The notes beneath the pieces are model-generated. The model saw only the letters and a list, made by a program, of their open reading frames with translations. It was not told the origin of the DNA and ran no database searches. A stretch of DNA of 64,000 bases, taken from contig OX359250.1 of NCBI GenBank assembly GCA_947179485.1, positions 29,522,654 to 29,586,653 of the forward strand, given 5' to 3'. The translations under genes were made by a program, and so were the position numbers. The stretch comes from Allacma fusca. Taxonomy: Eukaryota > Arthropoda > Collembola > Symphypleona > Sminthuridae. This document shows, in pieces, positions 12,892 through 47,110 of the stretch; position 1 is the stretch's first letter, and every line of letters starts with the position of its first letter.

Positions 12892-15800
12892 ATGGACCGG
12901 GACTACCTTGCCACCTTCGACTATGGTAAGGACTTGGGATTTTTTTTATTGTAATTATAATAATTGTAGTTTAGCGTGCTATTCGGAAATCCCTTTGAAT
13001 TTCATTGTAGGATTTTATTGATGAAACATTTTTCTCATTTTTCTGGACGGACAAGTGCAACTGCGTCGGAAATTTATCAAATTTGGTCTAGATAATTAAT
13101 ACCCCTTAGGCAGTCCTATTTTGTTGGTATCATTGGGGAGGAACAATGTGAAGTTATTTTGTGTAACAAGGATGCTCTCTCTTCTCCTCTCTGCTGGAAA
13201 TATGCAATTCATATAAGTTTGAAGCGGAAGACGGAGAATTGACAGTATTTTTGATTTACAGTGCTGACTCCGAGGTTATATTGTATAATAGTCAGAGAAT
13301 TAATAAATAAATAAATTGGAACTCTCCTCTCCTATGGCCCTGAGTCCCACGAGGCCTTGTAATTATAACGTTCTATTGAGTATTAATGAACACCAAAACT
13401 TGTATTTTCTTTAGAATTTGAGCCTCCGCCTGCCATTTACAGAGAATTATATCCAGTTCATTTAAAATATGCAAAACCAACGCTGAATATTTCCCAGGAT
13501 ATGGACACCGTCATTGTAAATCAACCACATTCACATGGAAGTAAATCTCCGGGGGGAACCTCTACCACAACAACATTAACAAGGGGCCTCCTGGGCTTTG
13601 AATCTCTCATTCCTGTCCAATCACTTAAATTAACCTTTTCTGGTATATTTAACTTATTGATTTTTTTTTGTCCTAAAATATAATCTATCATTTACATTTG
13701 ATTATTTATTCACCGCTCTAAAGTCCAATCCTCAAAACAAATCCTCTGTGCCTAGGGTCAGCCTCACTTTATCTCTCTCTCCTCCTCCTCCTCCTCCTCA
13801 AACGGAAATGTGCTCCAAGTAGTTCCTCTCCACTCTCCCATCCCTCCTGGATTTGTATTGGAGTATTTGTGTCTACTCTACATCTTTTGCCGACTGACTC
13901 TTCTGCATAGGCACAGTTGCAATTTAAAACTGTAGTCAAATTAAATTTGAACCCTTGAACTCTTCCTGTTACAGTATAGGCCTGTTTTAGATATTTATAT
14001 ACCGGTCAACTTGAGACACTATATAGTGTAGTTGTACCATCCGTGTCCTGTGCACCACATTGCTTTAATTGAGTTTAATGATTGCGGTATCCTCGCAAAT
14101 GTTGCAGAACTTAACGACTGCTGTCCAGAGATTTGCATCAAGAATGTACATGGTGATTTGCTATTCAAAGGACATTTCGGAACGAACCTTTGCTGCACAT
14201 GCTGTCAATGTCACCCGGAAGACAAGGAAGTTTTCATTAATGATTTAAATGAACGAAGTATTTCGCGTCTTGTGTTTCGTGCCGAAGCCTGCCGCTGCTT
14301 CGTAAGTGTGTAGATATAAATCCTACATAATTGAAACCTTCGAACAGTGCTGCTTTTAAATTTTAATTGGCCATCTCCTCTACATATAATTACATACTGA
14401 GGTAGACACACAGATCTAAATACTTTGAGGGAACTCCTGTAAATATATAGGGAGAATTACAGAGGTGAAAGTGAAATCAAATTAAAGGAAATTCCCTCTT
14501 CCCCTAGACTTTTCACTCCTGTATCGTTACTATTATCACAAATGGTACAAATACCCAATGCAGCTGTTGTGTGAACTACATTATAATAGTATGAAACATC
14601 CAGACCCGAGAACTTATGATAAGTTATATAAGCTGAGAATAATTTCATAGATATAGTTTGGAGTACAATTCGCACGGTGTTATTAACGCAGTCCATTCAT
14701 TTCCTTGCCGATTGTGACGATTCAAATAGACTTTTGTCGTTTATTATGTTTTTGCCGTTTAGCTCTATTTTCACACATTTTACATTGGACCACCTGCGGG
14801 ATACGTTCTCATGAAGCTGCATTCACGTCCAAATGAAACCAAATCACATGCCCCGTTCCATTGTAATCATTTTCTCCTCTCTTTATGAGCCCGTCATTAA
14901 GGGGAAATAATATTAACTCCAAATGAACTACCTCCCGGTCCCAGCCATGCCACTGGTAAATTAGCCGCCGGATTTCCATTCCCACATAAATAAGGGCTGC
15001 AGAGCTGACATTCACAAATCAATGCATACTCCCGATTTTCTTTTCCGTCAGTCATTAGTTTCATTTAATACTTGGACGTGTATTCAATTGCACTCATTTC
15101 GACAGGGATGATGTGTGTCCCTCAGAGTTTCTGTCGAGTCGAGATATATCTACGTATACAGTACTCTATTTTTATTCGTAAAGCCCTCCTTGATTACCCG
15201 GAGACAATTGGACCCTAGTACTTATTTTCAGAGTAATATGTAGTCTAGCTTGTTGTGTCGAGCCCTGGATGATATTACAAGTGGAGGAATTAATGAATTG
15301 TACACAATGGAATGTCTTTTTCCTCAGGACGAGACGGATTTTTATGAGATATTTGCCCCGATCCGTCAACGAGTGGGGACTGTTAACTACCAGTACAACC
15401 GAGGAGAGCAGACGTTTGTGATTAAAAATGAAATTTCCACGGAGGAGTTCACTGTGAAACGAGGGATCGGAGAAAATGCTCATGTTTGTGCACAATATAA
15501 AATATTTTCCCTCCCGTTTTTATTGATTTTATCACTGTACTGGAGATTTAATTGCCTTTTATTCCCCTCATCCTCATTGTGAGAGGAGTACTTTCCTCAT
15601 AATGGTCCTGGCCCATTTCCCCCCGGAACAATGAACCACTCTGGTTGTATAAAATTCTTCCACTTTTTTGTATATTTTCAAGCTATTTTTAACTCTTTGC
15701 AAGTCATTTTTCTCCCTTCCCCCTTCCCCATCATTACTCCTGTTCAGTTACTCCACTTCATTTTTGATTTCTTGTTTTGAACATTTTTGTTTACCAGAAT

Positions 15801-17360
15801 TTAATAATAATTATTACATTTTTTAATGAAATAAATTATTATTGCATGGATGAGAATAAAATTTGAAAGGTAATTACCCTTTAAAATATAGATAGATACT
15901 TCATTCCCGGCCTAGCCATATTTGATTTATTTGATGAAACTGCGTGTACATGTTATCTAGTATGTGCAAGCAATTATTATTTATTACTGATATCTTGCTT
16001 CTGATGAATTGCGTTTTTCCCCAACCCATCCCTTGTGTTCTAGCTCGAAACTTTTTGGACAAGGATTTTGTGCTTCCATAACTTGTCATCCAAACCTGCT
16101 CCATTTTCCCAAATCATCGGTCCTCTGGGACGACCCTGCACGGTCAGATCATTGATGTTAGCCTCTGACTGAGGAAATTTTGATGTGGTTACTTTTAATG
16201 TGGACTTCTGCCGTTCTCGATGTACTAAAACTTGTTATTTGTTTATTTTCCTTTACGTCCTACTACTACCACTACTACTCCAAATACTGACTCTCCCGAC
16301 TTTGTGAAGCTCCGATAACCCTTTTGCTTTCCAACTTGCAACCTCATTAAATGGAGTGGTTTCGGAAATTATGCACTATATTTTGTTTACTTGAGCGTAC
16401 ATATGGCCTGTGAGATCCGATGAGTGTTTTCCGCATCCTGGGTTCAAAGTAACCATGAACATGAAAGGCGGAACGGGAAGAGAATGTGACTTTTAAGTAC
16501 TTAAGTGATATGAAACGTTGGAATTGATATGATGCATTTGGATTTTTTGACGCAACTTTTGAATTTTTTAGATCAAGACAGTCACGGGAGATGTAATTGC
16601 TGTAGTGGACATCAATAGGCCTGGTCGGAATATTCGACCAAGCTACACACTCACATTTACTCAGCAGGAAATAACACTAATCGATAAGATATTGCTAATT
16701 GGATTCCTGATTTCACTGGTAAATTGAGCTTATAAATTAAATTGAGAGATATCCTGTAAGTTTTGTAGTAGTCATTAACCTTCAATCTTCATGTATTTAA
16801 ATGTGAGTCTAATCTTCCGAGAGTTATGGTGTAGTCCTCATCTAACGTACCTAATACCCCTAACAATATCCCACTGTATAAGCCTCTGTTAGGAGGGGTT
16901 CGTATAGATATAGCATGGAACATGAAAAAGTGAGTTTCCGTTTTATTTCCCTCTGGAATCTCTTGGCTGGATATATGTATCTATACAAATGACTATAGAA
17001 AGGGCTGGCCTATAGAAACGGAGTTGACATAATACTTCTAATCCATTTAACACTCTCCATAGCAGTTCCACACCTACAGTATATAATAGAGCCTGTCCTT
17101 AAAGTCATACCGCTTAAATTGGTGGATGGGAAGGAAGGGAATAACCAAATTTAAGGAGCGCAATCTCTATAATCTGTCTAGTTTGTGGAAATCAAATGGT
17201 GTAGAGTTCTAGAGTGAAAATCCGATGTAATTTTCATTTTCCACAGGACGTTCTCTACTTAGAGACCACATTTATCTTCCAATGTATCTTCATCCCATGC
17301 TTTTCTTTCGCATTTGCCATTCTGGTCTTCCTCATCTTGTACTACAAGCTCTCATCATGA
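12892..17360 (+). CDS. Scramblase-like gene A (divergent phospholipid scramblase family)
   Basis: Six exons are predicted: 12892-12925, 13415-13642, 14108-14301, 15328-15483, 16572-16718 and 17247-17360. They splice in frame to 290 aa. Order along the protein: a Pro/Thr/Ser-rich N-terminus; a segment (GFESLIPVQSLKL, about residues 71-83) aligning with the PGLEYL-type start of the scramblase barrel; a Cys-rich block (CCTCCQC, residues 116-122) where PLSCR proteins have paired cysteines; DLNER (about 133-137) where they have a DNLGRE-like turn; then EIFAPIRQRVGTV in exon 4. The family's C-terminal hydrophobic helix corresponds to IDKILLIGFLISL (about 241-253), but a second strong hydrophobic segment (about 262-286) follows it. 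The acidic calcium-loop residues of PLSCR1 are not visible. Family knowledge: scramblases move phospholipids between leaflets or bind membranes, and many are palmitoylated. The activity of this protein is unknown. The exon 3 acceptor was chosen by phase and by homology to gene C. Confidence 0.75.
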
Positions 17361-17485
17361 CACCAATTACGGGTGATTAATTGACTCGTTTACAAAAAAA
17401 AACTATCAAATTGTTTGCGTAAGACTTGTACACACACACACACACACATAATTGAGTGAATGGTCCCATTTCAGTGGGAGACGGC

Positions 17486-17491
17486 AATAAA
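17486..17491 (+). terminator. Probable polyadenylation signal of gene A
   Basis: AATAAA lies about 126 bases after the gene A stop codon, just after a short CA repeat in the predicted 3' UTR. Confidence 0.45.
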
Positions 17492-18350
17492 TGAATGTAT
17501 CTATTTCAAAAGCTCCATTTTCTGCTCAAAACAAAAAAAAAAGCATAAAGCCGGATAAAAAAAATCGAATTTATGCGGGAAATAAAAGCAACCATACCAT
17601 CATTGTATATTCTTATTTAAGGGACACATTCTTTTGGGCACGATACGATCTAACACTTGGGAGCTTATCTCCTTTCATTCCTCACTCCTGCTTTCCCACT
17701 CACCATGTAATTTCCCCTGCTAATCTGTACAAGGTTGTTATATTTAAGGATCTATGTATGTATATACACCCACATTCCCAGCTTATGCAGTGTGGAGCTA
17801 CCATATGGGCTTATGGGACCGTCCGTGTAGAAGGATGTGCACGCAATTGTGTAACTCTGAGGCAATGCTTGACTTTGATCCTCCCTCCATGAAGATTCCT
17901 TTGGAGTCTCACACATTTGTGTACCTACTTTATGTACATACAATAAGCATGAAAGAATTAACGGTCCGAATTCCTTTTAGTTTCGAGCCCCCGTATCACA
18001 GAATATATAGATACGAAAATCGGAATCTTGGCTGAGAAATATCCACCCGTCCTCACACATGACACTGTCAGTGTAGATTCAATTCAGCATGTGCATTACC
18101 ACTACCACTGGGGTTGAGTATGTGTAAATTATTCGGGAAACAGATGTTCTTTGTCTCATACTAAAAGTTTCCAGGCGTAAAGAGAAAGAGTTGCATGTCT
18201 GTGGTCAATTTGGTCATCATTGCCAGAGCTGGTGATAAGTAACGGCCCTGCTACGAGGCTCCTCACCTAACCTGGGTCTCTCTCTCTCTCTCTCTCTCTC
18301 TTTCCTAACAAGGTACGCTCTTCAATACCTCCCAGGCTGGTTCATTTCAG

Positions 18351-18537
18351 TATATAAAAAAGTATTTCCACAACGTTTTCTTTACTCGTGGTTCGGTCTA
18401 CAGCACCGTTACGTCTGTATGCTGGGGAAGTTGGCTCTCCCAGTGTAATATGGCTCAGGATGAGGATGAGAGTACGAGAGACCGGGGGAATGTGCACAAC
18501 GCTGAGAGCATCCCGAGGAAATGCATACCTATAACAG
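18351..18537 (+). promoter_or_regulatory. Possible TATA box and orphan first exon
   Basis: TATATAAA at 18351-18358 is followed about 90 bases later by an ATG (18450). That ATG opens a 29-codon hydrophilic frame beginning MAQDEDEST and ending at a good donor (ACAG/GTACTT, exon end 18537) in phase 1. Genes A and C both have a short first exon ending in phase 1, so this could be an alternative first exon of gene B. However, I cannot find a convincing phase-1 acceptor joining it to the gene B frame. It is speculative. Confidence 0.2.
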
Positions 18538-18668
18538 GTACTTACATGCTAGGACATAAAAGAGAGATTCGCAAAGAAAATGATGAGATGCACTCATTTC
18601 ATAAGTCTCTTTTTACGGAGGATCGCGAGGTTTCTCCTTAGCTGTAGGTACATGCAGGGGTAGAGAGC

Positions 18669-18699
<31 letters not shown>

Positions 18700-21600
18700 G
18701 GAGAGAGAGAGAGAGGAAGAGAGAGAGAAGATTGTACGAAGGAAGGAGAGCAAGCTTTCGTTCCAAATGCAGTTATCGATCGATCTGTGAACAGCGTGTA
18801 TGTACATATGTGTGGCTGTTCGTAGGCCTCTCATTTCTCAAGATCCTGAGTGTAGACAGTACTACAGGGCTGAATGAAGGAAGAGAGAGAGATACACACA
18901 TCTATACATTGCAGACTTTCTCCTCGTTTTTCGCCAATCCTTTCGCCTTTCAAATTCATTCGATATCTTTCACTTTCCTCTCTCGCTTTCAACTTACACA
19001 TCATTCTAATTCCTACAGTCTCATATTGAAATCCTATGCAAAAATAAGAGATAGATCTCTGTGTGGAGCAGATTTTATCTCCCAACGACAGGCAGTCTCC
19101 CTTCAAGTGATATAACACACATCTAGGAGGAAGCTCCTTCCCTCCACACGTACCTATCACTCGGTGTGATCCTCCGTTCGACTTGTTTATAGTCCCAGTT
19201 AGGTCTGTTTATAACGACAAGCCTGCATTTTATAACGGTGTTTATACCACGCGATGTGTTCATACCAACTTGTGCACACAATCAAATTCAAGTAAAAAAA
19301 AAGCGACTCTTTAGGGAAAACATCCGACTCTCTACTTATCCAACAGGAGAAAACGCCAGCCAGGAAAGGGCCTGGCCTCCACATATCCCAATGCTAAATA
19401 CTTTGTCTATACTGACAACTCCGTCGGAAACTCGAGCAAGTTCACTTCGAATCTCCTCATCCATCCAGAAGAGTCGCATTTTGGGAGACCGAGAATGAAC
19501 ACCGCGAGCCCAGATTTTAATGAGAATTGAAAAATTAATTCTCTCCGAAAAGTTTACAGAGAGCAAAGACTAAAAGGCGGAGAGGGCAGTCGTAAGACGG
19601 GAGGGGGGAAAGAAAGAGGAAGAGGGAGGAAGACGAGGCAACGTTTTTACGAAACCGCATCGAATACTATCAAATGGTAGTTTGGGTTAACTCAAAGTAA
19701 AACTCATGTTGACTTTCCCTCTTGGGCTCAAAAACCCAGTAGCTGCTGTAATAGTAAAAGTAGTGGTTGTTGTAGTAAGTAGTACGGAGCAAGATAAGTC
19801 GTACAACGGAATATACAATGTTCGTGAAGCCTAACGTGAGCAAGCAAACAAGCACCACTGCACGTCCAGAGAAGCTGATGTAGTTGAGGTGCCGCCGTGC
19901 CGCCTGAGAATCATCCACTAGCAAAGCTACCAGTTGTAGTAGAGGTAGTAGTGTGAGCAGCAGAGCACACACACACACACACACACACACAGTTATCATC
20001 CCATGGTCATATATAGTTATATTCGCACATTTTACGGCCAAGTCTGTACTACAATTTTCAGGAGCTAGCTCCGAGAGAGCTGGCAAGAGAGAGAGAGAGA
20101 GAGAGAGAGAAAGAAGAGAGACAGAGTGAAAGCGAGAGAGAGAGAAGGCTCCATAGATGGGTCCCAGCTGAATCAAAAGCTATATCCTTAAAAGTGTGCC
20201 TGCTCACTAGTCGGTCGGTACACAGATCGAGGCTATCTAGGTCCCGGTCCAAGAGGGAATGTCGAGCGAGAGAGTTGATCCTGCTTCCCTTGAAGCACAT
20301 TGAGGAGAACCAACGAGGAGAAGAGTGAAAGCGAGAAAGAGAAAGACGGGCCTCGTTGTCTTCTGTCTGATTGCTCAATTGGTTGTGAATAATTAAGTCG
20401 TGTCTGAATGTATAGAGGTAGGGAATTTTCGTTTCAAATCTTATTAATTCACGTCAGCTAAACCCACTCGGTGGTCATCCTCCCAGCCCACGTTCACCGA
20501 ACAGGTTCAGAATCGTCAGACAATCTCCAGAAATCCCAGGAATGTTAAAAAACGAACCCGTGTGAATAAATAACCCAGTGGCAACAATAAATTCCGAGAA
20601 ACTCCTCATCACCTATTATAATCCTCTCAGCATACGTCAACTTGTAAATCCTACTTTGGAATCTATTCAAAAGTGATAATAGTTACACAAGTCTGTCTTA
20701 TCTACAATAAATCAACTGGGTCAAGGTCTACTACCATTTAATACTATCTCCTTTATCGTCCCCGTCTTGGTTTTTTTCCTCTTTCCCTGGGAACACCAGA
20801 AGAAAGTAAAACGTAAGAAGAAAAAAAATACACAACTCTCTCCGCAGCCCTATACAAGTCATCAAGAAAACTTGTGTGCATATAATTGCATACAATGTGA
20901 GTAGCTTAAGTATCTACTCATAAGTTTCTAACAAAAAAAAATCTCTTAACTACTCCACCGTGGACTTTTAAAACCTTCCGTAATCATTGACGCAAAAAGT
21001 GTGCATTAGACTCACGATTAAAAAACTTTCACCCGGAAATTTAATCTTTTACCTTCCCACGACTCATTCTCACGACACTACATACCCTCATTCTTCCCAG
21101 TTTCCAAAAAAATTTATGAAGGGTGTAATCCTCAGTGGAATAGAATTCGGACATTGAAATGACACACAGTTTTCCCAAAGAAACTCAGAAACAATCTTCA
21201 CATCTTTAAATTATTATTTGGTGCAATCAGTGAGCCCGTTCAAGTGCTCAAAATCTCAAAAAAAAAAAATATTGAGTTCTTCCGAGCAGTCCTTTGACTT
21301 AATAGGATTTTTTTCAGATCTGAAAAATAAAATGAATGTGCCCTGAAAATTGTTTTCTTTTTTTACGTAATAACGAGTGGGAAAAAAAAAATCTCTGGAG
21401 TTCAGTCGTATCCCATGGTTTCAAATCGCTCCAATTTTCAAGTAAACTCAATATTTTTCCTACGAGAGCATATAATTTCATGATAGCCGAGAATATTACC
21501 GTTGAAAGAAGGTAATCTAATTTGACTCACAAGAAACTTTGAAGTATTTCCAAGAATTTCTGTAGCCATTGCGTTTGAATTTGACCCTTTTTTTCCCCAA

Positions 21601-21876: not shown

Positions 21877-24800
21877 ATGCATTTTGAGCCTCCGAATGAA
21901 GTTCACAATCCCCAATTTTGTGAGTCACCGGATTTCTCATCAGGTTATTTACATGATAATAATGAGAAGGACTCTGGCTCCGTGGAAAATATCGACCTTG
22001 AGGCCGATCTCCCATTTTATGTACCTGAATTTGAAGTCCTAGAGGAGCTGTCCTTCCTCAAGTTAACTGTCTCAGGTAAGAGAGTCATATTCTCCTTTAT
22101 TTCCTTCAATCTCCACTGATGAGGAGTAATAATAAATTACACTATTATTATCTACAACCAACTCTCTGCAGAAACATCCCAGGGTCTTACATTCATTTCC
22201 ACTCTACATTACCAAATCTCATACACATTTTCTCTATATATGCAAAAAGAACAAACAGATTTTTTTCTGTGAACAAAACAATAGACCGTCGGGAAAAATT
22301 CTGAAAAGTACCTCTTGCTATCTCGCAATTCCCCTTAAAAAGTATCTATTATTTCTGAAGTCCAAGGGGTACTTTTTTAGAATTTCGTCGATGAATTGGA
22401 TTTGTTCCTTGTGAACAACCCAACATAGTTTTTTTTTGTCCTGTGAAGGGAACAACACACATTTGTGCTCTGCACAGATATCCATATATATTACAAGTGT
22501 TCCCAACCTAAATACATGAATACATGGAGTTCTCATACATTGGGACACATGCAGATACCCTGCCTGTACAATGCCATTCTCACGAATCTCCATTGAAATC
22601 TCCGTCGTTTAGTAGCTACAGTATGACTGTACTTATAGGGACGTGCCTATAGAACTGTGGATATTTCCTAAAGGCTACCTTCCCCAAGAGAACGCCCACA
22701 TATCTCCGGTGGAAATCTGCATAGAGAGTCGGAAAAGACTCCATGTGGGCCACACATATTATCCCCTCTCCCTAAATATACAAAATTTTGGGCCGTTTAC
22801 TTTTACAACTATTTTAACCTCCAGAATGGGATGACAAAGTTCCAGTTCTAAGAAGGTTACTATCCCCCGATTATCATCAACACTTTAAGATATAACATTA
22901 TCCTTTAACTCAGCCCGGCACCACTGGGGGGAGGAGGTACAGTGAGAGTATTATTTATTTTCATTACCCAGCAAAGTACAAGTCAATTTCTCCGTGGGTA
23001 CATGGTGCTGGGTGTGTAAGTATGCATGTCATTATGATTATGACTCTCATAATGACCCTCCCTGACTTTTTTTTCTTCTTTATTTTGTTCTCCACAAAAA
23101 AATTTTTTTTTTGTCTCTTTTAAAGGGGGTTCAGCCACGCCAAAATTTACGATCCAAGACAAATTCGAGCAATTTCTACTGAAAGGAGAAGTGACGAGGC
23201 GTACTGTCTCTAACCAGAATGAAGAGGAAACGGAAATTACGATAATTAACACAAACTATGGCTGCATCTTGAAGATCCTCTTCTCTGAAGTAACGACAAT
23301 AATATAAAATGCTCTTGTTTCTATATATACTTCCTGCTGTTTCCCCCAATTTCTCCCGTCTTCCCCAGCCCTTCTTGTTGTCCTTAACTTTCTTATCTGG
23401 TAACTACTTTTACAGTCATTAGAAAAAGAACCACTCCTCCGGACCCATATGCATGCTCCTTACATAAGCTATTTTCTTTCTCATTCAAAGGGCCATTTCG
23501 TGCATGGGAAATGCTTCCCTACCGGTAGTTTATAATGTATGAGCATTGTGATTATTGCTTGGGTTCCTCCAAAACCATGTTGTACATACCGAGCTCCGGG
23601 TTTGCTCCCCAGTAATTATCCTCCACACAACCAGGACACTTTACAAGGGAGAAGTATAATTCTGCTTTCTCATTATTTAATCGAACACTTTATCCTCGTT
23701 TTACTTCCGAACTCTCCCGTCTCAGAGTCGTTTGTTCTGGAGAGAAAAAAAAAGTCGTTTTTGTTACAAACCCGGGGAGAGAAGAGTATCTGAAAGCCTA
23801 TAGGCTCTCTCTCTTTGGCGTTGTAGTACACCCTAAAGCGAGGCCTTTTTTTTCTCCCTGGCCTCGCAACCAACAACTAAAGTAGTAGTAGTACCCCAGC
23901 TCTTTGCCAAAAAGTTTCAAAGGACATGGTCGCGGAGTTTTGCTGGTGTAATCTCTGGATGTGTGTATGTGCTCATAAATGAATGCTTGCCTATGTAGTA
24001 ACGGGAACACCTTTTTTTTGCCAAGTGATATTATCTGTAATATTGAGTGTACTTAAGAGCATGGACATTTCCACTGTGAGAATAATAATAATCATCATCA
24101 TGAAGCTGGGAGGGAGAAACTTGAGTATGTATGGAGGAAATGGTTGGAGGAACCGCAGGAAGGAAAGTAATCGTACCAAGTGATGTTCCCACCACTTTGT
24201 CTTCTCTTTTCTTTGGTGTGTAGAGTCGACGTTGCTTTGCCATCGTGGCCCCACCTAACAGTCTCATTGGAACAGTGAGGCTGGATCGACTTCAGAATTT
24301 TATCGAAATCAAAAACTTCATCGATGGAGAAGCCTACAAGTCACCTTACTCCAGGATAGAAGTTTGTGTAAGTGCTCGATCTCAATGTCCTTGATGTATG
24401 GGGATGTTCCAGGGTTTGTCACCAAGACGATTTTGAGTGTCTTGAAATTATTTAGGAGTTTTTTTTTTTGAGGACTTGTGGATGTATGTATGTGAATCTT
24501 GAAACTCAGGCGAGAGTTGTTTACGGGAGGAATTTTAGTAACCCAGGGAGAGAGTAAGGTGCTCTCCATCTATGTAAATTACTCATTCCAAAGTAATTGC
24601 TTTCGGTTTTAAATATTCCCAGGAGTTGGGCTACTTAAGAGGCATTCATATACTTTAATAAAATACGTTCTTTCCCCATTTTAATAAAACTCCTAGCCTA
24701 TAAATAATAGCCTGTAATATCTTGTTGAGGGAGAGCTCCCCCCATGTTAATCTCAACTAATACCTATGTCTAAGCCAGTACTAGAAAAAAATAATTAATA

Positions 24801-27231
24801 TACTTAACAGTCTCTCATTTACGTTCTGCAGTATACATAGTAGGAGCGGATCGCGGAATAATTTAAAGCAGAGCTACGATTTTAATTAAGTTACGACATT
24901 TTTTACCCGTCCCATCCCGAGTTGCCTAGCGTCGCAAATACCATTTTTAGTATGAGTTAATAAGCTTTAGGGAGAATCCTGGGAGACTCTGAGAGACACA
25001 GAAAATAGGAAAAGTTTTTGCGGGTCATAAAAGTAGTACTTGAGATGAGCGAGGGGAAAGTATTAACTTTTCCTTTTCCCTCTTCGTCAGTTATTTCCTT
25101 CTTACTAATTCTCAGGAAATACTAACCTCCGCCAACGGGACGTATGCTTTTCAATTTTTTCTCCAGGAAATTGTTTTAACCTCTAAATCTCTATTTTTTT
25201 GGGGGGGGGGGAGGTTAGGTGAAAAGCGTTCTCAAAGTTTTATTTTTTTAATTTCGTTCAAGTACAGCCAATGTCTTTGACTCTGACTGTGATAATAATT
25301 ATTTTAGTACATGTAGCTGACTTTCAGTGTTGAAATTGGCCTTCCAAATGAAATATTGTTTTTAGAAGGGGTAGGTACTTTATGGTGAAGAAATTGTACG
25401 GCTCCGCATTATATATGGGAAAACAACTCAGGATTATTATTTCACAGGGGAAAAAACTCTGGAACAAGAAAATTTTTTTTTGGGGATAAAAATTGTAGGC
25501 TGAATCCACTATATCTGGATTTGGTCTTCACATTTTTGGGTGTGTGTGTATGTGTGTGTGTGTGTGTGTGTGAGTATGTGTGAGCCAGGGAGAAAATAGT
25601 GAAAGAAGAAGTCGAGGGTTAAGTCGTGACTGGAATTAATTTAACTTGTGTGATGAACAGCTACGGCGTCAAAATGGTCTCGTTGTGGCTCGAGCAACTT
25701 CCAATCCTAATAATCAATCTGGTCGTTTCTACCCCACGTATCCATTCTTGGTGGTGGATTTATCTGATGGGATTGGAGTTATTGATAAAGCACTGATTAT
25801 TGGATTCCTGACTGCACTTGTGAGTTCAAATTTCTTTTGAAAGTATTTTCATGACTGAAATAGCATATAGTTTAGAGCTACATAACCTTAGATATGTCGA
25901 ACTTGAGTAGAATTCCACCCTGAGAGAGGCCTCCTTATTGAGGAATAAGACTCCAGGCGGTATCTATTACAGAGAGGCAATAAGAGAATAAACATCCATG
26001 AATAAATAAATAATGGCTACTTGGAAAATCTTTTTATCTTGTTTTTTGTCCTCCTTTCAACCCTAACAAATCCGTGCTAAATTCGCCTTTGAGCGTAACG
26101 CCATTTAAACATGATTACATCCCCATCTCCCATGATCTCCTCCATGGCAATAAAATTGCCTCCAATTCAATCCCAAGTCTTCGGATTTGTACTTATATTC
26201 CTCGAACGGGTTCGGAGTTGTGTGATCACGAACCGGGATAATCGGTCTCAAGTTAAAGTCGATCGTTTTTACACCCAGATTTCAATAGAGTTGTAGTTGG
26301 GAATAACATTGCTATTCCAACGCTGGGGATCATGGATAGGGTCCTTTTCCCAGACAGTACTCCCAGATGATGGATATGTCTCCACAGATATGAGATATAT
26401 GCAACAGTAGCCAAAAGCTAAGGATGTAATTTTATTCAAGTTGACAGCTTTTTTGTTCCACTGTCGCACTCTCTCCCACCTTCACATAAGACAAACTTTC
26501 ATCTGTTTTTGTGTGAGGCTTTGTGAGAAACCTACAGGGCCATGTATTCTATAGCTATTAATAAAGATAACGAAAATTCTGCTATAAAATACTAGGGTGA
26601 TAAAAGCTCCGCGTCTCTTTAAATCCCAGTGACTCTTCTTCTCCCTTCGCCTTGTTCTACAGTCTCTTGATATCTACAAGCATTTCAACTTGAGAGTGTC
26701 ATTCCGTCCCTGTCCCCTATAGAGTCGGTGTGGAGAGTGTCTAAATGGTGAGGCATTAGACCCAGCACCATCTGCAGTATGTAGGCGGATGACTGACTCC
26801 GTATAATTATACCGGGCCTTGTTGTGTAAATTGCATGGAGCAAAGGGTTAATTTACAGTTGACTCTCTACAAGATTTACTTTACGTGTGACGTCTCCCCA
26901 CTCCCCCCACGTTCTTTTAGAGACTCGGGACTTCAAAGGGAAGGTGGAGATGCGGAAATCTTTTAATAATCAAATATACTATTAATGTTTGCCGTCCGGG
27001 GTGACACGTCACTATGGGATATACATACATAAGAGATGCTCATGAAGTGAGCCGTAAATTAAGCCCCACAAGTTTTCACTTTTACAAAATTATAATCTCT
27101 TGAATTATTCACAGGGAATGGACATAGCTGATGGGTTGAAAGGAACAAAGAAGATCATGCTATGGACGCTCATCTCTCTGACTGCTATTCTCTCCGTTTG
27201 CATCCTTATCATATATTTTTCATATGCGTGA
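21877..27231 (+). CDS. Scramblase-like gene B (divergent phospholipid scramblase family)
   Basis: Five exons are predicted: 21877-22075, 23126-23289, 24224-24367, 25661-25819 and 27115-27231. They splice in frame to 260 aa. The acidic N-terminus leads into FEVLEELSFLKLTVSG (about residues 51-66), aligning with the start of the scramblase barrel. Exon 3 carries RRCFAIVAPPNSLIGTV, homologous to RCFAVFSP in gene C. Exon 4 ends in VIDKALIIGFLTAL, the counterpart of the C-terminal helix of scramblases. Exon 5 adds a further hydrophobic segment (about 237-257). The cysteine block of gene A and the PLSCR calcium loop are both missing. Intron phases (1,0,0,0) match introns 2-5 of A and C. No 34-base first exon is found: the ATG sits at the FEPP sequence that opens exon 2 in gene A, with an in-frame TAA five codons upstream. 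Function is unknown beyond the family. Confidence 0.72.
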
Positions 27232-37650: not shown

Positions 37651-37790
37651 TAAAACGCTTTGACTGAAACAAATGTAACATGCTTTGACTGGAACAAATG
37701 TAAAACGCTTTGACTGAAACAAACGTAAAACGTTTTGATTGAAACAAATGTAAAACATTTTGACCAAAGCACGTGTAAAACATTTTTCAG
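37651..37790. repeat. 25-bp tandem repeat, about 5 copies
   Basis: The unit contains GCTTTGACTGAAACAAATGT and variants. Landmarks recur at 37657, 37682, 37707, 37732 and 37757, an exact 25-base period, with a decaying sixth copy near 37782. Because 25 is not a multiple of three and the frame through it carries no domain, I treat it as non-coding. Confidence 0.9.
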
Positions 37791-39569
37791 GCTTTCAGAA
37801 CTGTCAGGAGGACCTGTTTAAATTGGGTGTAACACATAAAATAGGATTATTAAACAAAGTAAAGTTTTGTGAGCTGAGGGTTCAAAGGGATTGTTCCATT
37901 TCAAGTAAATGTATATCTAATAATCTAATTCAAAACTTTGACCGTTTACTTTACGGATGGATTTGGAGGTCAGATATTTGTTTTATTTCAGAGGGGGGTA
38001 AAAATATGAATTCCTAAGGATTTTTCAAGGGCTGACTTGAATGAAATTTTGTAAAGTAATTTATCAGTTTTAAAGAAGGTCGTCATAAAAAATGTACCGG
38101 ACATCTTCTAGTTTTTCGTATCGATTAATAACTCTTCGCGTGACAATTGGGTGTCGCCGGGTCTTCTTTCTCTCCCTTGCTCCAGTTGTCTCGTTTGGGT
38201 ATGTAAGATGCTTGGGCCAGCTAGTAGTAGTGAAGTTAGTAAGTAGTAGGTTGGAAAGTGTGTTACAGTGTTCATAAAATGTCTCCAACCATGTTCACCC
38301 GCATCTATAGCATAGGGTTATTACCCACATGTAAGAAATGACTTGTCTTCTACACTCTGTGGATGTAAACCTGCTGCCACCTTAAACTGGTTTAATAGTT
38401 GCATCAAAAGCCAACTTTGTCTGACGTAAGCTACAGCAGGGAAGAAAGGATGCTATAATAATAACGTCAGATACAGCACCAGCCTGTACAAAAAGGACTT
38501 TGTATGTGTATGCTCTTGGGTGTATTGTACTCAGGGACAAATGGAAGGACTATGTACATACTCATGGAGGAGAAGTAGTTCAGAATAGGATATCATTCCC
38601 TCTGCTCTCGTCGTCGTCCACTCCCGCAGCCTCCTCTGCTAATGCTTATGCACGTAGGTATACATGTATCTACATGTGCACACATTCTTTATGAGGACTG
38701 AAGGTGATTTCAAGTGTGGTGACAGTGACGGCTGCCTGACTTCCAATAAACTATCTCTATCCTGGAAGAGACCCGCGTCAAGTCGAACAAAGTAGTAACA
38801 AAGAGCCTCTCTGAAACAGTTTCTGATTTTCTTGTTCCAAGAACACTTCCTTTAGTTCTAAAATCTCACCCTGTCCTCATTATTTTCTCATGGAAATGCA
38901 AGGTAATTTCTCAACAACAATTTTTCCTCTTCCGAAACCAAACCCCTACGTCGTCTCCGTCTCTCATGAATATTATATCATGTCTTTGAGGGAGGCTATT
39001 TACTTTCCAAACGAAAACAAATCAAATCCCCCCCAACATTATTTGTACACTCAACAAACGCCAGAGAAAACTTTCAGGGAACAAATATACATTCGGGTTT
39101 GTTTTGATTATCCTTTCTCCTTTTGTCTTTGTTGGGATGAGCCCCGGCCCTACCTGAGAGCCAAGCTAATTCTTATGTTTTAGTTTTATTGTACTGGGAG
39201 TACCGAGTTACGTCCCTGGACGACGACGGGAGTGGGGAATAAAACAAGAGAAAGTACGGAGGAATGGTCAAGGGAGACACACCTACAGATACCAACATAA
39301 ACTTTAAGGAGAAACGGACGACATCACTCTGGCACTCAAGGAATTGCTAGGGAAAGGAAAACGGAACTAGGAAAAAGGAGAGGACGAATGAGGGGAAAGC
39401 AAGAAAAAGGCACAAGGTTTGCTTTCGTATATATAATTTACGGACTCTGCTAAGGCCTACTGTTTGACAACGTGTGTACTCCAGGCAAACGGAGTGTGTA
39501 TTCCAGGCGAACAGAGGGTGTGTAGAGACGCGAGTGAGAGACCCAGGACTGCTATAGGGAAAATAGAGC

Positions 39570-39822
39570 GCGAGAGAGAGAGAGAGAGAGAGAGGCAGAA
39601 GAGAGAGAGAGAGAGAGAGGCAGAAGAGAGAGAGAGAGGAGAGAGAGAGAGAGAAAGCAAGGGGGAGGAAGAGAAAGCAGAGAATAAAAAATGTACGACT
39701 GAAATCGTCAAAAAGAAAGGTACAAGGTAGGACCAAAACCAGGACCATGCTGCTGTCTACATATAAGAGCATGCCTTTGTGTGTGTGAAGTGGAAGCAAC
39801 TCCGAGTACTTTCCCCCGAAAG

Positions 39823-39853
<31 letters not shown>

Positions 39854-40560
39854 AACAAATCCAGAGAGGAGAAAGCTGATACAGTATAGGTCTCTGCATA
39901 GGCCGAGCAGCATGTTTTATGAATCCTCACCATTCGAGGGAGAGTAGGCTCCTCGTTAAACTACTACCTTGTTCATGGGAATGAAGCAGAGATATGCTCT
40001 TCCGTGCACGTTCCCTCTTACGATGTAAGAATCAGGGTGAAATGGCTTCCTCAGCTGCTTATAGTATGTTCGAGGCTCGCTCGCGAAAACTACTACATTG
40101 CATTCGTATGAACATACAGAGAGAGAGAGAGAGAGAGAGAGAGTCAGTCACTCATACAGTGCACACATCCATAGCTATAAGAGATCCAGCGGGTGAGAGA
40201 GACAGACAGAGAGAGAGTGAGGGAGAAAGTGAGCACACTAGTAGCAGCAGCTCTCGACGTTCGTGGTAGAGACTCTGTGTGTAGAGGAGGGGAGACTCTC
40301 AGCCATATATGAAGACACACAGGCACTATTGTGAGTATACGGTGGGAGGCAAGAGAAAAGATCGTATTGAATTCTGTGTCCTGCCAACTGCGGATTCCGC
40401 GTATCGATCGGGACATTTTCCGCCAGTGAGCTAGGTTACCTACAAACTAACGGCTAGAGAATGTGAAGAGAGAGACTAGTGAGGACTCAACACACGACGA
40501 CGAGGAGCAAGAACCGAGAGAGAGAGAGAGAGACAGCAAGAGAGAGAGAGAGAGAGAGAG
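39570..40560. repeat. Cluster of GA tracts upstream of gene C
   Basis: Within 1 kb there are GA-rich runs at 39570-39655, 40118-40143, 40195-40232 (interrupted) and 40516-40560, plus a CA tract at 39822-39849. The last GA tract runs directly into TATATAG at 40561, some 430 bases before the gene C start codon. In insects, GA tracts near promoters bind GAGA factor; that role here is only a suggestion. Confidence 0.85.
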
Positions 40561-40992
40561 TATATAGTGTTGGGACGCCTGGTTTCGTGTAGTTAGTTAT
40601 CTGCAAGATTTACTTCCGTGTGCCACCACTCCCTCCGCTCCTGCAGCCGCCAAATGCAAAACGAACAGATTTAGTTTTTGTTGGCGTGAAAAACCCCTGA
40701 TTTCATCATAACTCGACTAACCTCTCAGTAGTTACTGTCCTCATCTGTTCAATAATTTTGAGTCGAGTCGAGAAGGAGAGAATCTTACCTCAAGCACTGT
40801 TCTTGTTCCCAGAGATTTTTACCATGGAAAATGAAAATGGTCTGGGCGTGACTGAAACCCATTTAAAATCCCTTGTGTGACAAACTCCAGTCAATTAACA
40901 AGCTTTTATCACTCATTTCCAATCTAATAGTTGGTGCGGTTTGGGGTTGGCAACTGATAGGAACTATCGAGTCAACACTATTGTGATATAGC

Positions 40993-42695
40993 ATGGCAGA
41001 TCCTTACTACCCGCGGGCACCGCCAGGTAATTCTTCTCAATCCTTTTCACTTTCTCTGGTCCTCCTTCCCTCCTTCCATGTGTGACGGGCGTCAAAAGTA
41101 GTGACCGAAGTCATGGAAGGAAACATACGGACCAGATATCATCTCCAGTCAATCTGTTCCATCTCAATAAACTCATGTATAACATAGTTGATCTAGCTCT
41201 GAGCCTCTGCTCAAAGGGGAAGAAACAACCGTTTTTCTCCATTTCTCATGCACAGGTCACCAATAACAGCAATCATTTAATTTCCTGCTGATAAAGTAAA
41301 AGGGAAAACACTCGCAGGGGCTTTCCACTTTTCAAGCCTTTCTTATGCGTTGATCCAAGATTTACCTTATACATAGATACGGGCCTACTCATATCTATCT
41401 ATATATGTACCTTAGGGAATTTAGATCCTACATAAACCTCTATAAATTCTCTCCAATGGAGCATCTTCCTTGCAGGAGTGTGCACATGAAGGGATGGCTG
41501 TATTAGTAGTGTGTTTTTTTTATGGCACATCAAGTAATCTTTGGAGGAGCATCCACCATAAATATCTGGTAGTATAAATATCTATCTGTAGTGCTCTGGG
41601 ATATCCCCTTTTACCTCCATGCATACTAGATATTCCATTCATACATGTAGATACTTATGAGCTGAGTATTTATCCCTACACAGCATTATTTTAGTGGGGA
41701 TGGAACGCCGGGCGACGAGGCTGGATGAACGGGTTAATTTCCCTATTTACGGAAAACTGTGAGGGGTTTTTATTAGCTTTTATTCCGAGAGTTACTCAGT
41801 TCATTAGGCATCTTATCAAAGGATATGTACATGTAATTATATATTTATTTCAAAGGAATGACTCTCTCTCTAAAAGTATGTTTGTTGGTGTTTGAGGAGC
41901 GGACTACAGCTCGGAAAGCCGTAATACAGGGATATAAGAAGTCAAAAAGGTAATTTAGGAACCATTGAGAGTACACAATAGTTGGGTGAGGAAAATGGTT
42001 GCAGTAAGATTAAGTCAGTTGTTCATGAAACTCTTGTTTTGAGGCTTGGAGTGTAACTTTGTTTTCGGAATAATGTTTATGGATTGCATCGACGGTGAAT
42101 AACATTATTATGACTATGGCGGTAGTTGAGAGGATGTGAGAACAGAGTGTCAGGGAAATTCGGAACAATGCCCCGTTGATATGATTCTTGTTGTTTTTGT
42201 TCGTCCTCCCCGGAGCAGTGGTGTGTGATAGCGTTTAATATGTACCCTTCACATTTAGAATTCGATCGACAAGTATCGAGTTACCCGAAGCTGTACCGAC
42301 CCGTCGTTTCCAACGACGACCATCATCACCATCATGGTCCATTCGTCCCGGTGCCTCTAAGCGACGTGATAACGGAGCAACCTATTCAGAGTTATGGTTC
42401 TCAAATTTCGACTGGACTACCTGTTACTTTTGGAACGAGCAGTAGTTCAAGACCGGGCCAAGCGTCTTCAATGATGTCACCAACTCAGATCGGTATCCCA
42501 CTTCCCGGACTCGAGATTCTCGACCGAATCCCCTTCCTCAAAGTTCACGACTTGGGTAAATTTAGTGGAAAACTTATTATTTTGCCTTGAGGCTCAACTT
42601 TTAACTTTTATAACCAAATGACTTCTCATTAGTAACGCTGTCTTGATAGACTGCTCCATACTACAGGCAAGTGAGTGAGGGGAGGGTAAGGGAAT

Positions 42696-42744
<49 letters not shown>

Positions 42745-45700
42745 GGAAAAGGAGATAGGGAGGAAAACATTCCATAAACTTTTTCTACTCTTCTCTCACT
42801 GGGTATGTCCGCACGGATGTGCTTTCCCTCCACACACTTTCGTCTTTACTTTATCTCTTTCTCATCTCCTTTTGCCTTAAACCTCTCTAACACCCGCGAA
42901 CACACGTCCGTAGAATTCCTAATCAAGGCGGTTTCAAAGGGCGTTTAAGAAATTAATGAATTCCTTATTGAATATTTAATACCATTCATTAATTTAAAAC
43001 CCGAAATTCCCTTGATTGTTCTCTAATACGCACCGTCTTTGTGACCGTCTGACTTGATGGGACTCACTAATCTGTCATTTGAATTATCCAGGACTGTTTT
43101 CGGGAGGCTCCATTTGTTCACCTGGCTATCGAATACATAACATGCAGGGGGACATGGTTCTTCGGGGTAAAACCGACACGCTCTTCTGTCCTTTCGACTC
43201 CAAACACAAGTCCGTCTTCATTAAGGACCTCAATGAAGAAGTTATATTTCAAGTCAAATTCACTCCATCAATTTGCGAGTGTGACTCGGAGGTGAGTTTT
43301 CCCTATATCTTACTCTCGTCACTTACCACCATCTCTCACAATCAATCAGTCTCCCCTTATCCTCGCAGATCTCCATAAATTCCCTCCTGCTATCATTGAC
43401 AAGGCCAGACACTCATCAAAATACCAGCATCTCTGGGACTAGCTCTCTCTCTCCCTCTCTATATTTTTATAGAAACCTTTCAAATCTTTTTATCAAGCTT
43501 TTATAATGCAATAGTATTTACTATCCCTTTTACTGTACCCTGCTACTATCAAACAAAAACTGCCGTAGGGTAGCAAAAAAAAAAAAGAAAGGGAAAGGAG
43601 TACCAAAAGGCACACAAATCATCTCACAACCATGCAAATGCCAAATATCCATCAGCATTAGAAACCTCAGTAGGAAGACCGGGGACGAACAAATGGGAAG
43701 TATGCATTAGAGCTAAACTCCCAAATATAAAGTACGGAAGCATACAAATGACAAATATGTACGTAGTAAAATTAGAACTATATAAATGAAGGAAGCCGAG
43801 AAAAATACAAGTGCAGAGGCGTCCTTGTGTGTTGGCAGGATGAAAGGGATTTGTAGCTATAGCAAGTGCCGTAATAGTAGCACCTTATAAACTCCAACCG
43901 ATTCTGGAAAGCCCCGAAACTTCAATTTGTTCAAAGTCCAGAAAAACTAGGATGTGTGAGGAAATCAATGGAAATCGGCATGAAAGAATCAATTAGAAGG
44001 ATGGGAGCTATACTCTGAAGGCGAGGGAAGCTAGGGTGAAAGTGTGAGTGTGTGTATTGGAGCAAAAGAAACCCTACACATAGAAATCCCCAAAACCAGG
44101 TGAATGGTATCACACCATATATAGAAAGTTAAAGACGGGAGTGTAGATATAGATACTATGTGTGTACACATGGAACGCCCTAATGTTACCACCCACTCCT
44201 CCAGGGACAAAAAAAAACGTTGGAGATGATTGAGAGAAACTAATGAAATCGTTCCAACTGTTTCGATCATATAGTCGTTACTGTAGATGGATACATGTAC
44301 GTGGAAGTGCCAGAGGAAATGTGTAACTGCTCTGTAAGTGTGTAGAAAACTCTAGCAAACAAATGAGGGAGCGATAAAATGATTGTGCCACTACCACTGA
44401 AAAAAAAAGAAGAAGTTAGAGTCATTTGAAATTTCCTAAGTTATATGATTGCCATATGGAAAAAATTAAGATGAATAAACTTTCTCCCCCGACTATTGCT
44501 CCTGCACTTGACTCCTGTCCCTGAAACTGTAACTACTTTTACTTAAATTATAAGTAGCTGGTTCATTCTAGATGACATTTCCATATTAGAACTTAGACTT
44601 GATGAATTATTGCATTTGTATTTCCTTTGAAAAATGTATACCCCTTTGTATTTTAATTGTCTACTCCGATATATAATTATATTTCCTTGGGATGAGAGAA
44701 TCTATGCAATGACTATAAATTATCTTATCAATTACAATATATACCCACGTGATCCATACATGGATTTCAGAGAAGCATAATTTGGGGAGAGTATGTTTGA
44801 ATAATACTGAAGACTCTGGCCCTGCTGGTTGCTCTAATGAGATGATTGGTAAAAGTTTTGCATAGATTTCCTGTGGATTGTTATATATATAGATACATAA
44901 TTATGCATGTGTATGTGTGACTCTGTAGGAGAAGCGATGCTTTGCTGTATTTTCTCCCGTCTATGAAAATCCATTCGGTGCAGTCATGTTTGAAGCTGGG
45001 CAGTTGAAGTACTCCTTGAAAATCCTGAACGCACTCGAGGGAGAAACATTTGCTGTACAATTCCTTGGGAGCTCGGATATCTCGGTGAGTACTAAATATG
45101 TCTTACGGTTATGTGCACCTTTTTGGTCCTCCACCATAAGCATTGTGGCCTCACGTTCCTTGGACTTATGTGCTTACGGGAGCTTCATATGTATATATCT
45201 ATATGTGTAGTTACCCATCTGTAGATATGTATTTATGTATGTGTGGAGACTCAAGCTCGACGGCTTTTCCGCTTCATGGAAATTGCAACTGATATGTTAC
45301 TATCGAATTCATTCTAATCTGATCCCTCATATACGTTTCTTGAGTACTCAAAGTCTCCATTTTCTGTCTTTATCTCTTGCCTTTTATGACCCTATTGTTT
45401 CGCCGTCCTTCCTCACTGTACGATTTCCTGGCTCACATGCTATGGAGGAGCGGGCGGCGGACGCAGTTATTATTCCTGAGACCCTCCAACAGTACAGCTG
45501 GTAGGGACCTCCTCCTGAGGTACTCTCAGTGTAGGGTTTTGGAGGAAGGGAAGGAGAGCCGGAGATTCCTTTCTCTCTGTCGTTTTTATTTTGGGCGGGA
45601 GGAGAAAGAACAAAAGCTCATACAATTTTTTTTTTCGATGTAAATACTCGCAGATCAAAGGAGCTGATGGAACGATTGTAGCCATCATCAATATACAGAG

Positions 45701-46873
45701 GAAACGAGGAGAAACTCTCAAGTACACGTTGACTTTTACCGAAGAAATCAGCTCAGCAAACAAAGCCCTCTTCCTTGGCTGCATCGTTACTCTCGTAATA
45801 ATCATCTCTTCACTATCTCTTTTCACCATTTTATTTCATTTCGCTCTCCAATTCACATTTGATAGTCTCTCCGGCCTTATAGCACTCTCCTCACTCTTTA
45901 CTCCTCACTCCTCACACACACACACGCAGTCACCATCCAAGTTCCTTCAAGATCAAGTCAAGTGTCTGGTTACAAAACGGTTTACATGCGTTTGCTCTTT
46001 GAGTTCAAAAACGGGTTTAAGTCCTTTAAAATAACGATTTTAACAACCACTCCCCAACCCCACACTTGGAAAAAAAAGAGCCCACTGTAATTCATTTTCT
46101 CCAGCAATCATTTCCAAGTGTGATATCATCTCCGGGTCGTCCCGAGGTTTACTACTTTTTACGTTCCCCTCAAACCGTGATGAAAAAAGTGTTACAGCCG
46201 GAGTTAATGCTCTTGGCCCCGTTTCCCTGATTTTTCTCAACTTTCCAACCCCCCAAAAACTTAGCATAAAGTTTTAACAAAGGATTTAGATGGACCTTTG
46301 CCGTTTACCATAGGGATTTAACCCGGGCTTTCAACAGGGAGCTTATGATGGCGCCTCAAAATGAGTTTTCCCCGTGTTGCACTCAAACACCTCGTAGCGG
46401 CTCAGAAAGGACTTTATAGTTGTCTATTGTGAGGCCCTATCACCGGTAGTAGTAGGAGTATAAAGTATATAGGACTAGATAGTAGTAGTAAAATGGGGGA
46501 ATGGAAGAGAGCCGTGCTTGCCAAATACTATTTGAACCCTTGACAACTATCTAAATATCATACAAAAGGGAAAAAAAATTGCTGATACCATTGGTCTCCA
46601 CCTTTCCCCAACGATTTGCATTCCACCACACCAAACGTTCCCACTTGAGAAAGCTGGAGGCTCAAGCAATGAAGCAGAAGTAATATTGAGATTTGGGAGG
46701 ATTCCCTGTCCTTTCCATAAGCTAGTGTAGAATGACTGGAGGAGAAAAAAAGAGAAAGATGGACAAATCCTCATGGAAAAAAAAAATGAGCAGATCTAAA
46801 ACAAATCATGTGGTCAGGATTTTTTGAGCCCATGGGATGAATAGCTTAAATTGTATTCCTGTCTCTCTCTCTC

Positions 46874-46917
<44 letters not shown>

Positions 46918-47110
46918 CAGGAATGAATGACATGGAATATGCGGAGTGTAAAAATAACTTTATTTTCTGTCTTTTCAGGATTTGGTGAGCTGTGAGGCTG
47001 ATTGTAGTAAATGCATTTGCCTTTCACCGTTTCTCGTCGGATGTCTCACTATCCTAGGATTAACCTTGTTTTCCCATACAGCCACAACTAAAACCAGCTC
47101 TATTAAGTAG
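40993..47110 (+). CDS. Scramblase-like gene C (divergent phospholipid scramblase family)
   Basis: Six exons are predicted: 40993-41026, 42232-42555, 43092-43291, 44929-45084, 45654-45794 and 46979-47110. They splice in frame to 328 aa. This copy shows the family best. The Pro-rich N-terminus (PYYPRAPP) and a low-complexity region with five histidines are followed by LPGLEILDRIPFLKV (about residues 102-116), close to the PLSCR consensus PGLEYL..I..L.V. Then come YRIHNMQGDMVLRG and FIKDLNEEVIFQV (exon 3), RCFAVFSPVYENPFGAV (exon 4), and a hydrophobic stretch KALFLGCIVTL closing exon 5. Exon 6 adds a cysteine cluster (C290, C294, C297, C299) and a last hydrophobic segment (about 303-317). Exon 1 is 34 bases and exon 4 is 156 bases, exactly as in gene A, with identical intron phases (1,1,0,0,0). 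The exon 2 acceptor was chosen because a nearby alternative would give a stop. The calcium-binding loop of PLSCR1 is not seen. Confidence 0.8.
42695..42744. repeat. (GA)n microsatellite in gene C intron 2
   Basis: A nearly perfect GA tract of about 50 bases, interrupted once by AAAG. Confidence 0.95.
46862..46914. repeat. (TC)n microsatellite in gene C intron 5
   Basis: A TC tract with one CCC interruption, ending about 65 bases before the exon 6 acceptor. Confidence 0.95.

What the first reader, a model, noticed from the sequence alone, without database searches (positions are those of the whole stretch)
12892..47110. Tandem triplet of highly diverged scramblase-like genes with conserved intron plan
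Genes A, B and C lie head-to-tail with no other gene between. Protein identity is low, yet intron phases are the same (1,1,0,0,0; B lacks the first), exon 4 of A and C is exactly 156 bases, exon 1 of both is exactly 34 bases, and the final intron falls at the same point after the helix (L/D, L/G, L/D). This means old duplication followed by fast protein divergence, as expected of an expanded lineage-specific family.
Basis: partly seen in the sequence, partly recalled or inferred. Interest (0 to 1): 0.75.

Follow-up and report, generated by a model that had tools for sequence, protein, structure and literature searches.

The report
Three old, diverged scramblase-family genes
Three neighbouring genes in what looks like an arthropod genome are old, strongly diverged cousins of the phospholipid scramblases, and most of their shared exon layout was inherited from ordinary scramblase genes rather than being special to them.

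Summary
Three head-to-tail + strand genes (A 12892-17360, B 21877-27231, C 40993-47110) splice into open frames of 290, 260 and 319 aa, phases 1,1,0,0,0 (B: 1,0,0,0), with 34-base first and 156-base fourth exons in A and C.

They are kin of Scramblase, but only at profile level. Single-protein Pfam scores miss the cut-off. Profile against profile scores 48.8; the best of 150 shuffles was 21.4.

Two corrections to the interpretation. First, the core intron plan does not mark the triplet: ordinary scramblase genes of this genome share it. The last intron agrees exactly in five of five alignments; the one before it depends on the alignment. Second, the triplet is not the whole sub-family: a fourth, dispersed member, D, lies on contig C12.

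A, B and C lack the [DE]xDN start of the Ca2+ site (as do 10 of 15 paralogues), and B has no cysteine at the palmitoylation site. All four end in a second hydrophobic segment, as do 8 of 20 paralogues. Best reading: membrane-anchored, tubby-like scramblase relatives, probably not Ca2+-gated. New variant of a known kind.

The parts
12892..12925 (+). gene A exon 1 (34 bases, start codon, phase 1)
   Evidence: splice site and length only
13415..13642 (+). gene A exon 2 (Pro-rich N-terminus, GFESL...SLKLTFS)
14108..14301 (+). gene A exon 3
   Evidence: 35% identical to C exon 3
15328..15483 (+). gene A exon 4 (156 bases)
   Evidence: weak donor GTTTGT
16572..16718 (+). gene A exon 5 with core helix DKILLIGFLISL
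17247..17360 (+). gene A exon 6, second hydrophobic segment and stop
21877..22075 (+). gene B first coding exon (MHFEPP..., matches A exon 2)
   Evidence: start codon inferred
23126..23289 (+). gene B exon 3 equivalent
24224..24367 (+). gene B exon 4 equivalent (144 bases)
25661..25819 (+). gene B exon 5 equivalent with core helix DKALIIGFLTAL
27115..27231 (+). gene B last exon, second hydrophobic segment and stop
   Evidence: least certain exon
40993..41026 (+). gene C exon 1 (34 bases, start codon, phase 1)
42259..42555 (+). gene C exon 2
43092..43291 (+). gene C exon 3
44929..45084 (+). gene C exon 4 (156 bases)
45654..45794 (+). gene C exon 5 with core helix NKALFLGCIVTL
46979..47110 (+). 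gene C exon 6, second hydrophobic segment and stop

Best explanation
A, B and C descend from one gene of the phospholipid scramblase (PF03803) family, copied in tandem long ago; a fourth relative, D, lies on another contig. Shown here: common descent of these genes, profile-level kinship with scramblases, and core introns in the phases (1,0,0,0) and, mostly, the places of scramblase genes. Inferred: each protein folds as the scramblase/tubby-like domain with its central C-terminal helix. The acidic start of the Ca2+ site is absent in A, B and C and the palmitoylation cysteines are few (A, C) or absent (B), while a second hydrophobic segment in the last exon gives a membrane tail. So they most likely work as constitutively membrane-anchored, Ca2+-independent scaffold or lipid-binding relatives of scramblases, with the proline-containing N-terminus recruiting partners, rather than as Ca2+-activated lipid scramblers.
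For: hhalign of the ABC profile against 14 paralogues (of 24 places): score 48.8, E 1.7e-6; best of 150 column shuffles 21.4, reversed 19.1; core with helix 46.8 against 25.3; without any hydrophobic helix 36.9 against 20.9. Against 8 paralogues E 3.7e-7. With D added 62.6. D, found only on recheck, scores 59.8 against ABC (100 shuffles at most 21.8) and 30.7 against the 14 paralogues (at most 22.5) and has phases 1,0,0,0 and the same kind of last exon. Introns: last one in the same column in 5 of 5 alignments; first core intron within 3 columns of the C9 cluster in 4 of 5; second within 2-4 columns of it in 4 of 5. In the first alignment the chance of such agreement is about 5e-6 to 1e-5 per gene, from 2-4 hits in 400,000 draws; the genes are not independent and the reference places were those of the best-agreeing genes. 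Core helix keeps the K....G spacing (DKILLIGFLISLD against MKAVMIGACMLID). Clades: ABC 100/100, ABCD 100/99. Second hydrophobic segment KD19 2.83, 2.53, 2.21, D 3.13; 1 of 155 comparable frames of the window reached 2.2.
Against: PF03803 is below its cut-off (25.4 bits) for A (13.6) and C (12.2) and not reported for B or D; C, scanned without exon 1, scores slightly better to PF05826 phospholipase A2 (15.4) and RET_CRD (12.8), both also below cut-off (B was scanned without its last exon). B alone against the paralogues is not significant (18.8). Direct spliced search of the window with a canonical profile sees nothing. The third core intron lies 16-18 columns from the C9 cluster's in 2 of 5 alignments, and E-INS-i moved the second by 8-9 columns without D and the first by 44-49 with D. 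Loss of [DE]xDN is not special: 10 of 15 paralogues lack it too; A and C have as many cysteines at the palmitoylation site as L012 and L013. One of 100 shuffles in the ABCD control scored 137.9 over 9 columns, which I take for an aligner artefact (next 19.8; a second 100 at most 21.6). Function, expression and topology are untested.
Confidence: 0.62

Rival explanations
1. They are ordinary, working phospholipid scramblases whose sequence has simply drifted, still moving lipids when Ca2+ rises.
For: Family descent and core helix kept; most other paralogues also lack a strict [DE]xDN, so that motif may not decide activity.
Against: [DE]xDN absent in 3 of 3, and B has no cysteine at either cysteine site.
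Confidence: 0.15
2. The genes belong to some other family, and the similarity to scramblases is chance or due to the hydrophobic helix.
For: No single protein passes a Pfam cut-off, and C has a weak phospholipase A2 match; canonical spliced search is blank.
Against: Signal remains without the helix (36.9 against 20.9 in shuffles), rises when D is added (62.6), and introns agree in phase and mostly in place.
Confidence: 0.05
3. One or more of the three (B above all) is a decaying pseudogene.
For: B has the longest branch of the three (1.78 against 1.06 and 0.98), no separate first exon was found, and its last exon is uncertain.
Against: All three have open frames across every exon with GT-AG introns and kept core positions despite great age.
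Confidence: 0.1
4. Intron plan and exon lengths were gained in the triplet itself, marking a lineage-specific gene design.
For: Identical phases and two identical exon lengths in A and C; the first intron (phase 1, after 34 bases) could not be matched to canonical genes, and the third core intron matches only in some alignments.
Against: Three core introns agree with canonical genes in most alignments, the last in all five; D on another contig has the same core plan.
Confidence: 0.07

Closest known systems
Phospholipid scramblases (Pfam PF03803; human PLSCR1, Drosophila Scramb1)
   Same: Domain order, core C-terminal helix, core intron phases and mostly places as in scramblase paralogues of the same genome.
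   Different: Below Pfam cut-off singly; start of the Ca2+ site missing; palmitoylation cysteines few or absent; an extra hydrophobic segment at the C-terminus, whereas human PLSCR1 is described with a single membrane helix at 288-306 (PMC12003403, passages read).
Canonical tandem scramblase cluster C9:28.385-28.423 Mb of the same genome (L009, L010, L034, L011)
   Same: Core introns of phases 1,0,0,0; same chromosome, 1.1 Mb away; tandem arrangement.
   Different: Over-threshold PF03803 matches; the model tails are short, 0-13 residues, without a second hydrophobic segment.
Paralogues with a second hydrophobic tail (L012, L013, L014a, L014b, L015, L019, L035, L037)
   Same: Hydrophobic segment after the core helix.
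   Different: The six with a model in the intron map lack the intron between exons 4 and 5 that A, B, C, D and the C9 cluster have.
Gene D, C12:25783822-25785078 (-), L052
   Same: Same sub-family: phases 1,0,0,0, D after the last intron, hydrophobic last exon.
   Different: On another contig, no start codon found, even longer branch (2.33).
Tubby-like / LOR proteins
   Same: Proposed to share the fold with scramblases (Bateman et al. 2009, seen only as a reference entry in PMC12003403, otherwise recalled; the paper is not held).
   Different: No direct match of A, B or C found; fold not tested here.

Membership tests
Scramblase PF03803 (by descent) | single-protein score over the Pfam cut-off | tested here: not met
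   A 13.6, C 12.2 bits, B none; cut-off 25.4. So I file them as relatives of the family, not as Pfam members.
Scramblase PF03803 (by descent) | profile-level similarity over the domain beyond shuffled controls | tested here: met
   for B only through A and C
Scramblase PF03803 (by descent) | intron positions and phases of scramblase genes | tested here: met
   phases of all four core introns; places of the first, second and last in most or all of five alignments; the third is alignment-dependent
Scramblase PF03803 (by descent) | core C-terminal helix with K....G and following acidic residue | tested here: met
   B has G instead of D after the last intron
PLSCR1-type Ca2+-dependent scramblase | Ca2+-binding segment starting [DE]xDN | tested here: not met
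   0 of 3; also absent in 10 of 15 other paralogues
PLSCR1-type Ca2+-dependent scramblase | palmitoylated cysteine cluster | tested here: inconclusive
   2 cysteines in A, 0 in B, 2 in C at the site; 0-5 in 15 paralogues; modification not testable
PLSCR1-type Ca2+-dependent scramblase | lipid scrambling activity | not testable with these tools
   needs an assay
Tubby-like superfamily | beta barrel around a central helix | not tested

The most novel reading that the evidence does not exclude
A, B, C and D mark a membrane-anchor swap inside the scramblase family: the conserved 'membrane' helix stays buried in a tubby-like barrel, lipid anchoring through palmitoyl-cysteines was given up (wholly in B), and a true tail anchor encoded by the last exon took over, turning a Ca2+-switched protein into a permanently membrane-bound adaptor.
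Probability: 0.2. Interest if true: 0.5.

Novelty: new variant of a known kind. Interest (0 to 1): 0.36.

Why it matters
It shows how far a scramblase gene can drift while its exon layout stays readable: profiles and introns recover a kinship that single-sequence searches miss. It also points to scramblase relatives with a second hydrophobic tail and without the usual Ca2+ site, which could help separate the proposed roles of the family (lipid scrambling, membrane scaffold, tethered regulator).

Tried and rejected
Chance similarity was tested by column shuffles, reversal and removal of the helix, and rejected. A direct spliced search of the window with a canonical profile failed and is reported as a negative. 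The solved-structure search with the canonical gene L016 found no scramblase relative (2 weak matches, E 0.38 and 0.69).

Family size. Whole-genome searches: with A, A and C; with B, only B; with C, C, A and eleven other weak matches, E 0.028-0.82. I first took those eleven for chance; on recheck I fetched their places. One is the real relative D; one, L057 on C12, is an intronless scramblase-like gene (canonical profile 76.3; PF03803 13.0 bits, below cut-off); eight on C9:17.18-17.21 Mb and one on C9:39.28 Mb lie in repetitive, stop-bearing sequence and gave no gene. A search with D returned D, a weak match to C (0.287) and one on C8 (2.9, not examined); a search with C exon 5 returned C and D but missed A. 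Such searches are weak here, so four members is a lower bound.

The first intron could not be matched to canonical genes. Naming the species failed. Literature: searches returned no paper; none of the 15 listed (of 41) held the word scramblase; others (12 of 12 listed; 10 of 20; 5 of 5) showed nothing on such genes by title or abstract start. Of two papers I read found passages only. Paralogues left out: of 24 scramblase places modelled, 15 went into the intron map; nine were dropped for a spliced score under 150 or, L034, a stop. Of the 15, L016 has no introns and five models start downstream of the first core intron. The tail count uses the 20 models with score 90 or more; some may be incomplete at the end.
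Full report
What was checked. The window lies on contig C9 (29,522,654-29,586,653) of an unnamed 392.7-Mb genome in 91 contigs.

Gene models. Reading the + strand with splice sites gave A (12892-17360, six exons, 290 aa), B (21877-27231, five exons, 260 aa) and C (40993-47110, six exons, 319 aa). 14 of 14 introns are GT-AG. Phases are 1,1,0,0,0 in A and C and 1,0,0,0 in B. Exon 1 is 34 bases and exon 4 is 156 bases in A and C. The last intron follows the core helix at the same point in all three. B's coding sequence begins HFEPP after its ATG, matching EFEPP at the start of A's second exon, so B has lost the first intron, or starts inside, or has an unseen first exon.

The three are related. 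Exons 3 and 5 of A and C find each other in the window (35%, E 6e-8; 39%, E 2e-6). B aligns with the A+C profile over 188 columns with score 69.3; the best of 150 shuffles of B was 27.3. In a tree of 19 rows the three form a clade with support 100/100, A and B closer to each other (95/77). No shared repeat of 40 bases or more remains between the copies except simple and local tandem repeats, so the duplications are old.

They are kin of scramblases. Singly they miss Pfam: A 13.6 and C 12.2 bits for PF03803 (cut-off 25.4), B nothing; C has a slightly better sub-threshold match to phospholipase A2 (B was scanned without its last exon, C without its first). As a profile they reach score 48.8 (E 1.7e-6) against 14 paralogues of the same genome; 150 column shuffles reached at most 21.4 and the reversed profile 19.1; without any hydrophobic helix the score is 36.9 against at most 20.9. 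Singly against the same profile A gives 39.6, C 31.3 and B 18.8, so B belongs through A and C. Against: a spliced search of the window with the canonical profile scored 40.5-42.3 in the three gene regions, inside the 35.9-55.7 of 34 scans of the window.

A fourth member. The search with C gave, besides C and A, eleven weak matches, which I at first dismissed. On recheck one of them, C12:25783822-25785078 minus strand, is a gene, D: exons of 163 or more, 188, 168, 144 and 114 bases, phases 1,0,0,0, D after the last intron and a hydrophobic last exon (KD19 3.13). No start codon was sought. It scores 59.8 against the ABC profile (100 shuffles at most 21.8) and 30.7 against the 14 paralogues (at most 22.5); Pfam sees nothing in it. 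ABCD against the 14 paralogues scores 62.6; in 100 shuffles one gave 137.9 over nine columns, which I take for an aligner artefact, and the next 19.8; a second 100 gave at most 21.6. ABCD is a clade with 100/99, D and B on long branches. So the sub-family is partly dispersed and has at least four members.

The intron plan is largely inherited. PF03803 matches fall, by my grouping of the 38 matches, into 24 places; A, B, C and D are not among them. There, canonical introns lie at columns 116-117 phase 1 (9 of 15; five models start downstream and L016 has no introns), 196-198 phase 0 (14 of 15), 271 phase 0 (4 of 15, all in the tandem cluster on C9 1.1 Mb from the window) and 333-334 phase 0 (13 of 15). 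A, B and C have 118/119/114 (1), 198/199/199 (0), 271/271/271 (0) and 333/333/333 (0). Four introns thrown at random agree as well with chance about 5e-6 to 1e-5 per gene (2-4 hits in 400,000 draws). But the result depends on the alignment. Over five alignments (L-INS-i and E-INS-i without D; L-INS-i with D; E-INS-i and G-INS-i with D) the last intron agrees exactly in five; the first core intron lies within 3 columns of the C9 cluster in four (44-49 off in E-INS-i with D); the second within 2-4 columns of the C9 cluster in four (8-9 off in E-INS-i without D); the third is exact or within 6 in three and 16-18 columns off in two. So three of the four core introns are well supported as inherited and the third is likely but open. 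The first intron of A and C, after 34 bases, could not be matched. A 156-base exon also occurs in canonical L010, and D follows the last intron in most canonical models.

What changed. At the Ca2+ site, L009a, L009b and L016 read DADN, L011 EADN and L015 ESDN; the other 10 of 15 paralogues read otherwise; A reads IRPS, B FYPT, C ETLK. At the palmitoylation site A and C have two cysteines and B none; the 15 paralogues have 0-5. Human PLSCR1 is described with a cysteine palmitoylation motif, a Ca2+ motif at 273-284 and one membrane helix at 288-306 (PMC12003403, passages read); in Drosophila Scramb1 the palmitoylation cysteines are needed for slit-diaphragm formation (PMC11335299, passages read). 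The last exons of A, B and C each carry a second hydrophobic segment (mean hydropathy over 19 residues 2.83, 2.53, 2.21); among 155 comparable terminal-exon-like frames of the window one reached 2.2. For B this is weaker, since its last exon was chosen with hydrophobicity in view. The same kind of tail is present in 8 of 20 other paralogues examined and in D.

How it probably works. Shown: descent, gene structure, absence of named motifs, presence of the hydrophobic tail. Inferred: a tubby-like domain whose core helix is retained, anchored by the tail, not switched by Ca2+, with the N-terminus as a binding platform. That scramblases share a fold with tubby-like proteins, with the helix inside the barrel, is recalled from Bateman et al. 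2009, which is not held. The side of the membrane on which the domain lies is not settled here; the passage seen in PMC12003403 calls the PLSCR1 N-terminus extracellular. No structure was predicted.

Verdict. A real, strongly diverged branch of a known family; new variant of a known kind.

Noticed in passing
L009, L010, L034, L011 (C9:28.385-28.423 Mb): Tandem cluster of five canonical scramblase genes on the same chromosome; the model in L034 is partial and has an in-frame stop.
   Followed up: partly
L052 2323-3579 - (C12:25783822-25785078): Gene D, a dispersed fourth member of the sub-family, missed by Pfam and nearly missed by protein search.
   Followed up: yes
L057 1619-2560 -: Intronless open frame of 313 aa that looks like another diverged scramblase relative (canonical profile 76.3, PF03803 13.0 bits, below cut-off).
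   Followed up: partly
L019 926-1825 + and L035 1397-2278 -: Two nearly identical intronless scramblase relatives on different contigs (C5, C8), both with a second hydrophobic tail.
   Followed up: no
L016 1471-2478 -: Intronless canonical scramblase (335 aa) with a long N-terminus; best PF03803 match of the genome.
   Followed up: no
L012 and L014 (C8:42.19 and 42.00 Mb): Two nearly identical scramblase genes about 190 kb apart, a much younger duplication than A, B and C.
   Followed up: no
window 55922-57625 -: Open frame of 567 aa with no Pfam match.
   Followed up: partly
window 1157-6099 -: Several minus-strand open frames that may be exons of one gene; the five frames tested had no Pfam match.
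   Followed up: partly
window 62155-62310 -: Frame that resembles a BEL/Pao-type retroelement integrase (label recalled, seen as a chance hit).
   Followed up: no
window 8240-8555 and 37651-37786: Tandem arrays with periods of 67 and 25 bases.
   Followed up: no
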